From Aphanothece sacrum FPU1 (GTDB lineage: Bacteria > Cyanobacteriota > Cyanobacteriia > Cyanobacteriales > Microcystaceae): a DNA stretch of 64,000 bases. Location of the stretch: positions 62,001 through 126,000 of the forward strand of contig NZ_BDQK01000013.1 in the NCBI RefSeq assembly GCF_003864295.1, given 5' to 3'. Position 1 is the first letter of the stretch, and the number at the start of each line of letters is the position of its first letter. The notes below the pieces were generated by a model, which made no database searches, was not told where the DNA came from, and was given only the letters and a program-made list of their open reading frames with translations. Below are positions 7,045 to 9,274 of this stretch, piece after piece. Made by a program: the position numbers and the translations under genes.

Positions 7045-7203
7045 AAATCGAGGTTCTCCTAAAAAACACATATTAAGTTTTTAATGTTAAAACCTTACCT
7101 TACATTTCTAGAACAAGACGTTGCAATACTTAATATAATAAAAATCTAGCAAAATTCTGGTAAAAAGGGACATCAATCTGTTACCATAGTATTCTGTGCC
7201 TTT

Positions 7204-7290
7204 GGAGAGGTGGCTGAGCGGTTGAAAGCGGCTCCCTGCTAAGGAGTTATGGGGTAACACTCATCGAGGGTTCGAATCCCTCCCTCTCCG
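7204..7290 (+). tRNA. tRNA-Ser (GCT anticodon)
   Basis: An 87-base tRNA with a long variable arm typical of serine tRNA. The acceptor stem GGAGAGG (7204-7210) pairs with CCTCTCC (7283-7289), followed by discriminator G. The anticodon GCT is at 7238-7240 within CTGCTAA, and the T-loop reads GGTTCGAATCC. CCA is not encoded. It reads AGC/AGT codons. Confidence 0.95.
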
Positions 7291-7394
7291 TATCTCGACA
7301 ATACTAGATAAAAATAGCTTGAAGTTCGGTTTATGGCAGAAAACCCTACACTATTTGAACGCAAAATCTGTTATCTTGGAATAGTCAAGGATAA

Positions 7395-7451
7395 ATCGTT
7401 CATCTGCTTAGAGTAGACGGAAGTAGAGAGTGGAACTCTTGAAGGAACGCG
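7395..7451 (+). promoter_or_regulatory. Glutamine riboswitch (glnA / Downstream-peptide motif class)
   Basis: The aptamer core matches the L-glutamine class as known from cyanobacteria. P1 is CGTTC (7397-7401) with GAACG (7445-7449). P2 is TCTGCT/AGTAGA with a 3-base loop (7403-7417). The conserved GACGGAAGTA loop-E element follows, then P3 AGAGT/ACTCT with loop GGA (7427-7439), then TGAAGGAACGCG. In cyanobacteria this class senses glutamine and controls nitrogen genes such as the glutamine synthetase inhibitor gifB or short peptide genes. No gifB follows here; only a short frame and a terminator come before fumC. Folding was checked by hand only. Confidence 0.87.
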
Positions 7452-7460
7452 CCTCATTCG

Positions 7461-7553
7461 ATACCACAGCAACGTTTAGAGGTTGCCAGAGCTAAAGGGG
7501 AAACTAATTTAGTTGAGCAGTTGGAAGCAGAAAGATGTTACTACACTAACTAA
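7461..7553 (+). CDS. Possible riboswitch-controlled 30-aa peptide without a normal start codon
   Basis: Directly after the glutamine aptamer one frame reads IPQQRLEVARAKGETNLVEQ and continues LEAERCYYTN to a TAA at 7551-7553. It has a charged, helical, protein-like composition, which is what the Downstream-peptide class of glutamine RNAs predicts. No ATG, GTG or TTG occurs in frame between the preceding TGA (7440-7442) and the peptide; the only candidate start is ATA at 7461. The gene may have lost its start or may use a rare one. The coordinates assume ATA. Confidence 0.4.
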   Translation: MPQQRLEVARAKGETNLVEQLEAERCYYTN

Positions 7554-7639
7554 CGTAGGAGTAGTTTTTAGTGTAACTTTACTTTTGTCGAATCTAGAAT
7601 TTACTGTAGATTTCCTTCGAGCTAAAGATACAAATCTCC

Positions 7640-7669
7640 GGGGTGAACTTAGTTTACCCCATTTTTTTT
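7640..7669 (+). terminator. Rho-independent terminator after the riboswitch transcript
   Basis: GGGGTGAAC (7640-7648) pairs with GTTTACCCC (7652-7660) over a TTA loop and is followed by ATTTTTTTT. It ends a transcript that contains the glutamine aptamer and the small peptide frame, so fumC is probably transcribed separately. The rest of 7670-7894 is AT-rich, with no further feature seen apart from the fumC ribosome site. Confidence 0.85.
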
Positions 7670-7894
7670 AACTTGTCAACGATCACAGCTCATATTCAGC
7701 TTTAGAATGAATTCATGATTTGATTCTAACCAATGGAGAAAGGGTAAAGGTTAAAAGTTTCTGTAATATCCAGGGATAAAGATTTAGGGTTAATAGAATT
7801 CAAAGGGTATCTGGCTATTAGGTTTGATGATATCAACTTAATAAGAATTAGTTTAAATTTTATCAATTATTATTCATTAAATAGGAGAGAATGT

Positions 7895-9274
7895 ATGCGT
7901 AAAGAGAAAGATAGTATGGGAGAGATTGAAGTTCCTAATGAGTGTTATTGGGGTGCGCAAACTCAGCGATCGCTACAGTATTTTGCTATTGGGAAAGATG
8001 TCATGCCCAGAGAAATGATTCGGGCAATTGGTATTCTTAAAAAAGCAGCAACTAAAGTTAATTGTGACTTAAATAAATTAGCTTTTGATAAAGCCAAATT
8101 AATTATAAAAGCCAGTGATGAAGTAATTTTAGGGAAATTAGATGATCACTTTCCTCTGAAAATTTGGCAAACAGGAAGTGGTACTCAAACCAATATGAAT
8201 GCGAACGAAGTAATTTCTAATCGCGCTATCGAATTAGCTGGAGGAATTTTAGGTAGTAAAGAGCCAATTCATCCCAATGATCATGTTAATATGTCTCAAT
8301 CTTCTAATGATACCTTTCCTACGGCAATGCACATAGCAGCAGTAGAAGAAATTGAGCATAATTTGTTACCAATGGTGACTAAATTACGGGAAGCTTTAAC
8401 TTTAAAAATGGTAGAATTTAACCCTATTGTTAAAATTGGTAGAACTCATTTAATGGATGCGGTTCCTTTGACATTAGGACAAGAATTTTCGGGATATGTT
8501 TCTCAACTGGATAAAGATATTGATCGTATTAAGAAAACTTTGCCTGATTTGTATGAATTAGCTATCGGAGGAACTGCAGTAGGAACAGGACTTAATACTC
8601 ATCCTGAATTTGCCGAAAGAGTTGCCGATGAAATCGCTAAATTAACCGATTTACCCTTTATTTCTGCTCATAATAAATTCGCTGCTTTAGCCGCTCATGA
8701 TGCTATGATTATGACCAGTTCAGCCTTGAAAACATTAGCCTGTTCTTTGATGAAAATTGCTAATGATATACGCTGGTTAGGTTCAGGGCCTCGTTGTGGA
8801 TTAGCTGAACTTACTCTACCAGAAAATGAGCCTGGATCATCAATTATGCCAGGTAAAGTTAATCCTACTCAATGTGAAGCGATGACGATGGTTTGCGCTC
8901 AAGTTATGGGGAATGATATGGCTATTAGTGTAGGAGGAAGTCAAGGAAATTTTGAGTTAAATGTTTTTAAACCCATGATTATTTTCAATTTGTTAAATTC
9001 TATTCGTTTATTAGCTGATTCTTGTTCTTCTTTTACAGATCACTTAGTATTGGGAATTAAAGTTAATCATGATCAAATTAACTATTTTGTCAATAATTCT
9101 TTGATGTTGGTAACTGCTCTTAACCCTCATATTGGGTATGATCAAGCAGCCCAAGTTGCGAAAAAAGCCTATAAAGAGAATACCAGTTTACAGCAAGCTT
9201 GTGTTGCGTTAGGCTTTCTCAGTGCAGAAGAATTTTCTGCTATTGTTCGTCCTGAAGATATGACTAATGCTTAG
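7895..9274 (+). CDS. fumC: Fumarate hydratase class II
   Basis: FumC interconverts fumarate and malate in the TCA cycle and is iron-independent. The 459-residue length and the motifs fit: [20 protein letters not shown] near residue 90, the [19 protein letters not shown] segment, the [16 protein letters not shown] segment and the superfamily signature [23 protein letters not shown] upstream supports the ATG at 7895. The gene stands alone, after the riboswitch terminator and before a palindromic gap. Confidence 0.95.

What the first reader, a model, noticed from the sequence alone, without database searches (positions are those of the whole stretch)
7395..7669. Glutamine riboswitch controlling a short frame that lacks a normal start codon
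The aptamer core (P1, P2, loop-E GACGGAAGTA, P3, GAAGGAACGCG) is clear by eye. In the Downstream-peptide class such RNAs precede short conserved peptides. The frame here codes 30 protein-like residues but has only ATA as a possible start, and the transcript ends at a terminator before fumC. Either the peptide uses a rare start, the start has mutated, or the RNA itself is the product. A facing TACACTAA / TTAGTGTA pair at about 7540-7575 at the end of the frame may be the expression platform.
Basis: partly seen in the sequence, partly recalled or inferred. Interest (0 to 1): 0.72.

Follow-up and report, generated by a model that had tools for sequence, protein, structure and literature searches.

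The report
Glutamine riboswitch stranded on pirA remnant
An intact RNA sensor for glutamine is left in front of the tail end of a small nitrogen-regulator gene (pirA), because a deletion of about 275 bases removed the start signals and the genes it used to switch on; relatives keep the intact operon, and in many cyanobacteria the same sensor turns out to control PirA-type proteins.

Summary
The aptamer is real: Rfam RF01739 (glnA, type 1 glutamine riboswitch) at 7395-7453, 52.6 bits. It is not of the Downstream-peptide class. The 30-residue frame is real protein sequence, but not an independent peptide. [quoted passage not shown]

In at least 13 related genomes the same leader is followed by a ribosome-binding site, a ~50-codon IF7-like (gif) gene and a complete ~50-codon pirA. 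In the window one internal deletion of about 275 bp joins the leader (to about 7467) to pirA codon 24. It removed the ribosome-binding site, the gif-like gene and the first half of pirA. That explains the missing start codon; ATA is leader sequence. The relatives' platform pairs CGCCTC with the ribosome-binding site GAGGCG, with covariation. The window keeps only the CGCCTC half, so the switch has lost its output.

The genome keeps an intact pirA and gifA elsewhere, so the best reading is a recent operon relict. The wider result is more interesting: type 1 glutamine riboswitches often control PirA-type proteins, as gif-like-pirA operons or DUF4278-PirA fusions. I did not find this association in the papers I could read.

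The parts
7371..7376 (+). probable -10 element (TTATCT) of the operon promoter
   Evidence: inference: same place as TATAGT-like elements of G009 and G012 in the alignment; the consensus scan does not call it
7395..7453 (+). type 1 (glnA) glutamine riboswitch aptamer, intact
   Evidence: RF01739, 52.6 bits, full length 1-53/53, no broken pairs
7450..7455 (+). CGCCTC, the anti-ribosome-binding-site half of the expression platform; its partner GAGGCG is deleted here
   Evidence: alignment; pairing tests
   Evidence: identical to the leader of G016 and LEGE 06147 up to the joint
7467..7470 (+). deletion joint (exact base ambiguous by 2-3 nt); about 275 bp present in relatives are absent
   Evidence: query 9-88 and 89-166 match G029:C135 at 8096-8176 and 7743-7820; same split in G061 and G009; alignment
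7468..7553 (+). pirA remnant: codons 24-51 and stop; no start codon, no ribosome-binding site
   Evidence: NCBIfam NF050139 positions 24-48 of 48, E 1e-10, 41.2 bits, cut-off 50; 38.8 bits; alignments
7542..7575 (+). TACACTAA / TTAGTGTA inverted repeat; no evidence for a role
   Evidence: z +0.73; no counterpart seen after pirA in relatives
7640..7669 (+). intrinsic terminator that ends the relict transcript before fumC
   Evidence: 9-bp stem and 8 T; stem z -3.75

Best explanation
The locus is a relict of a glutamine-riboswitch operon: type 1 glutamine aptamer, a gif-like gene (IF7-like, presumed inhibitor of glutamine synthetase), then pirA (inhibitor of PII-dependent arginine synthesis). 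In relatives, low glutamine leaves CGCCTC, just 3' of the aptamer, free to pair with the ribosome-binding site GAGGCG of the first gene; glutamine stabilises the aptamer's closing stem and frees that site (translational ON switch; direction inferred from the anatomy and from the published ON behaviour of gifB). In the window one deletion of about 275 bp removed the ribosome-binding site, the gif-like gene and the first 23 codons of pirA. It left an intact sensor joined to a 28-codon pirA tail that cannot start translation. The transcript, if still made, would run about 285 nt to the terminator at 7640-7669. The loss is tolerable because the genome keeps an intact pirA and gifA elsewhere. Shown by sequence: aptamer, pirA identity, deletion, missing start, spare copies. 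Inferred: ON mechanism, recency, loss of function.
For: RF01739 hit. The frame is PirA positions 24-48 of 48. The two halves of the window sequence match one contig of relatives about 275 bp apart (G029, G061, G009). Gap from riboswitch to PirA match is 221-238 nt in nine relatives (320 in a tenth), but 13 nt in the window. Full alignment. 79 of 80 named PirA homologues have an ATG and full length. Platform pairing of 6 or more bp in 29 of 39 other loci, with compensatory changes in L022, L023, L173, L186, L191; the window has only 4 Watson-Crick bp at chance level. Invariant His15 and nearly invariant His25 of PirA are lost; the predicted PirA fold is a two-helix hairpin, helices 5-33 and 36-50, of which the window lacks residues 1-23. 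Own genome: intact pirA at C5 with an NtcA-type site GTAACAATAGCTAC upstream, complete gifA at C1.
Against: The aptamer shows no decay, and the 24 comparable codons still look protein-like (pN/pS 0.16 against G029; no stop or frameshift). Either the deletion is recent or something is still selected. No second strain with the deletion was available, and no reads to confirm the joint.
Confidence: 0.9

Rival explanations
1. Orphan riboswitch RNA: the approximately 285-nt transcript is itself the product, for example a glutamine-binding small RNA or a base-pairing RNA, and is now kept for that.
For: Aptamer fully intact, strong terminator, no translatable frame.
Against: Whole transcript folds about as shuffles (z -1.21). 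Everything 3' of the joint is ordinary pirA coding sequence. No second case seen in about 220 genomes searched.
Confidence: 0.06
2. A short functional peptide (C-terminal PirA) is translated from ATA or another unusual start under riboswitch control.
For: Codons conserved as protein, low pN/pS.
Against: No purine-rich ribosome-binding site before 7461; an in-frame TGA lies at 7440; ATA is leader sequence in relatives; invariant residues and most of helix 1 are missing. Conservation is inherited from the time before the deletion.
Confidence: 0.03
3. The aptamer now regulates fumC downstream.
For: Same strand, fumC starts at 7895.
Against: A strong terminator lies 225 bp before fumC, about 190 nt from the aptamer, and no alternative pairing between aptamer and terminator was seen by eye.
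Confidence: 0.02
4. Assembly error: the deletion is not in the organism.
For: No reads were available here.
Against: The joint has at most 3-4 bases of microhomology, no repeat; the contig is 1.19 Mb; no intact operon copy is found elsewhere in a genome that is 99.4% complete.
Confidence: 0.03

Closest known systems
Type 1 glutamine riboswitch (Rfam RF01739, glnA motif), gifB leader of Synechocystis 6803 (reviewed in PMC6316151)
   Same: Aptamer sequence and structure, full length; leader ends in the same GAACGCGCCTC as relatives.
   Different: Ribosome-binding site, and so the output, has been deleted; the gene behind it is a truncated pirA, not gifB.
PirA, Ssr0692 of Synechocystis (NCBIfam NF050139; PMC8092223)
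   Same: C-terminal half: RLEVARAKG...LVEQLEAE..YY.
   Different: N-terminal half and start codon absent. The described pirA is controlled by NtcA and NsiR4; no riboswitch control is mentioned in the papers read.
IF7 / GifA, glutamine synthetase inactivating factor (NF052599)
   Same: First gene of the intact operon in relatives matches IF7 positions 2-38 of 66.
   Different: That gene is short (49-56 aa), lacks the IF7 C-terminus, scores under the cut-off (24-41 against 70 bits), and is wholly deleted in the window.
Downstream-peptide (type 2) glutamine riboswitch, RF01704
   Same: Same ligand class, short proteins downstream.
   Different: No covariance-model match here; known from marine picocyanobacteria (PMC6316151).

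Membership tests
RF01739 type 1 glutamine riboswitch | covariance-model match over the gathering score, full length | tested here: met
   52.6 bits, cut-off 35, 1-53/53
RF01739 type 1 glutamine riboswitch | binds L-glutamine | not testable with these tools
   needs in-line probing
functional riboswitch (aptamer plus expression platform) | platform coupling the aptamer to a ribosome-binding site or terminator | tested here: not met
   CGCCTC kept, partner GAGGCG deleted; best pairing in the window is 4 Watson-Crick bp, or 5 with G-U (p 0.32)
RF01704 Downstream-peptide riboswitch | covariance-model match | tested here: not met
   no hit at E up to 10
PirA (NF050139) | score over the curated cut-off of 50 bits along the whole profile | tested here: not met
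   41.2 bits, positions 24-48 only: homologous fragment, not a complete PirA
PirA (NF050139) | start codon and ribosome-binding site | tested here: not met
   79 of 80 homologues have an ATG
PirA (NF050139) | binds PII and lowers NAGK activation | not testable with these tools
   biochemistry needed

The most novel reading that the evidence does not exclude
Glutamine riboswitches of type 1 are a widespread direct control on PirA-type inhibitors of arginine synthesis, not only on glutamine synthetase inhibitors. They drive either a gif-like-pirA operon or a single protein that fuses DUF4278 to a PirA domain (the arginine counterpart of IF17, which is DUF4278 plus IF7). The window is a natural case in which that branch was lost.
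Probability: 0.65. Interest if true: 0.62.

Novelty: new variant of a known kind. Interest (0 to 1): 0.42.

Why it matters
The window itself is an operon relict and explains away a seeming start-less peptide. The comparison that explains it shows something useful: type 1 glutamine riboswitches often precede PirA-type genes. In a class-wide sample of 116 genomes, 30 riboswitches in 26 of the 71 riboswitch-bearing genomes lie 230-412 nt upstream of a PirA match on the same strand, and 29 of the 30 frames are longer than plain PirA. The 19 such loci that were fetched encode YRG-repeat (DUF4278-type) proteins; five were tested, all over the Pfam cut-off for DUF4278 and four over the NCBIfam cut-off for PirA. 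The PirA paper (PMC8092223) left N-terminally extended PirA versions open as possible false annotations; these data suggest that they are real and under glutamine control. They also suggest that calling every DUF4278 gene gifB, as in PMC11288750, mislabels part of them.

Tried and rejected
Downstream-peptide class: no model hit. TACACTAA/TTAGTGTA hairpin as platform: no better than shuffles and out of place. ATA start: leader sequence in relatives, no ribosome-binding site. DUF4278 origin of the frame: considered because most type 1 riboswitches precede DUF4278 genes; rejected because the frame matches PirA and the own genome has no DUF4278 gene. Intact copy of the operon elsewhere in the genome: not found. 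A first alignment was too diverse for the collection scan. A looser aptamer pattern brought in spurious matches, so its totals (44 of 92 with 6 or more bp, shuffles 3.2) are weaker evidence. Solved-structure search for PirA: nothing significant. The original type 1 riboswitch paper (PMC6212724) is not held, so an association with pirA reported there cannot be excluded.

Full report
CHECK. The covariance-model scan puts RF01739, the glnA or type 1 glutamine aptamer, at 7395-7453 on the + strand with 52.6 bits (gathering score 35), full length and without a broken pair. RF01704, the Downstream-peptide motif, does not match at E up to 10. The frame 7461-7553 (IPQQRLEVARAKGETNLVEQLEAERCYYTN) has an in-frame TGA at 7440 and no ATG, GTG or TTG before the body of the frame. 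A 9-bp terminator with eight T lies at 7640-7669, and fumC starts at 7895. Upstream is a tRNA-Ser(GCT), 7203-7291.

WHAT THE FRAME IS. Relatives were searched with RF01739. In the same family and order the riboswitch is followed by two short genes. The first matches IF7, the glutamine synthetase inactivating factor, over positions 2-38 of 66 (under the curated cut-off, so 'IF7-like'). The second is PirA, NCBIfam NF050139, at 63-80 bits in the three tested. The window's 30 residues match the same PirA model, positions 24-48 of 48, E 1e-10.

THE DELETION. In nine relatives the riboswitch and the PirA match are 221-238 nt apart (320 in a tenth); in the window they are 13 nt apart. The alignment shows the leader TCATTCGATACCACA, as in G016 and Pleurocapsales LEGE 06147, running straight into (A)GCAACGTTTAGAGG, the pirA codons E24-H25-R26. 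The joint has only a few bases of microhomology. Lost are the ribosome-binding site GGAGGCG, the whole gif-like gene, the pirA ribosome-binding site, and pirA codons 1-23. The ATA is leader sequence. Of 80 PirA homologues fetched by name, 79 have an ATG and full length.

STATE OF THE REMNANT. Against G029 the 24 comparable codons show 8 synonymous and 5 non-synonymous changes (pN/pS 0.16), with no stop or frameshift. This constraint can be inherited from before the deletion; intact pairs show 0.25-0.42. His15, invariant in 34 PirA sequences, is gone, and His25, nearly invariant, has become Gln. The predicted PirA structure is a two-helix hairpin, helices 5-33 and 36-50, mean pLDDT 78.7; residues 1-23, most of helix 1, are missing here.

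EXPRESSION PLATFORM. In relatives the bases just 3' of the aptamer, CGCCTC, are complementary to GAGGCG immediately before the first start codon: 6 or more pairs in 29 of 39 distinct loci other than the window (my count from its table). Compensatory variants exist: CACCTC/GAGGTG (L022, L023), GCCTT/AAGGC (L173), CGCTTCTC/GAGAAGCG (L186, L191). CGCCTC overlaps the 3' edge of the closing stem, so glutamine should free the ribosome-binding site. This direction is inference and agrees with the ON behaviour reported for gifB (PMC6316151). In the window CGCCTC (7450-7455) remains and its partner is deleted; the best remaining pairing is at chance (p 0.32).

THE REST OF THE GENOME. It holds a second RF01739 riboswitch (C6), an intact pirA (C5) with an NtcA-type site about 80 bp before its start, a complete gifA (C1), a longer PirA-like gene (C16) and no DUF4278 gene, hence no IF17. 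So the organism has lost riboswitch control over these inhibitors but keeps the inhibitors.

WIDER PATTERN. Ten of 58 relatives carry riboswitch - gif-like - pirA, with further cases in G058, G061, G062 and LEGE 06147 (G061 is probably the same record as L096). In a class-wide sample of 116 genomes, RF01739 occurs in 71; 30 riboswitches in 26 genomes have a PirA match 230-412 nt downstream on the same strand (pairs listed by reading the tables and checked). 29 of these frames are longer than plain PirA. Nineteen such loci were fetched and all encode YRG-repeat proteins followed by a PirA-like end; five were scanned and all five carry DUF4278 over the Pfam cut-off and a PirA match, four of five over the NCBIfam cut-off. 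This parallels IF17, which is DUF4278 plus an IF7-like end (PMC6316151). The PirA paper mentions N-terminally extended versions in a few strains and could not exclude false annotation (PMC8092223). No paper I could read links pirA to the riboswitch; the original riboswitch paper is not held.

VERDICT. The finding is a real riboswitch, but its 'peptide' is the tail of a deleted operon. On its own it is ordinary gene decay caught early. The riboswitch-PirA association is the part worth following.

Noticed in passing
L173-L191 (19 loci): Type 1 glutamine riboswitches directly upstream of DUF4278-PirA fusion proteins (about 130-165 aa), widespread in cyanobacteria; parallels IF17 = DUF4278 + IF7.
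   Followed up: partly
L180 (G122:C27:37000-38200): Riboswitch locus with two PirA-like repeats in tandem in one 105-residue frame, apparently split by a frame break from a DUF4278-like first part.
   Followed up: no
L193 and L194: Three riboswitch plus 56-aa YRG-repeat (DUF4278-type) gene units in head-to-tail array, about 300 bp apart, each with its own CGCCTC/GAGGCG pair.
   Followed up: partly
L002:1501-1830 (G000:C6): The genome's second glutamine riboswitch precedes a 74-aa two-helix membrane-type protein with relatives behind riboswitches in L023 and L032; no family in NCBIfam, only a weak non-significant Pfam hit.
   Followed up: partly
L035:1150-1653 (G000:C16): Longer PirA-like protein (up to 167 aa) without DUF4278 and not near a riboswitch; a similar gene lies downstream of the riboswitch-gif-pirA operon in L017 (2372-2851).
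   Followed up: partly
L024 (G003:C183): RF01739 hit before a Gln-rich protein with a signal-peptide-like start; no CGCCTC/GAGGCG pairing.
   Followed up: no
G020:C1:1665467-1665538: Another PirA fragment with an in-frame TAG in a small genome of the family; related small genomes G026, G031, G034 have no PirA match but keep riboswitch plus gif-like gene.
   Followed up: no
window 7239-7290 (-): Plastid-psbl-rps4 3' UTR model matches the antisense of the tRNA-Ser gene under its gathering score; an artefact of tRNA sequence in that model.
   Followed up: no
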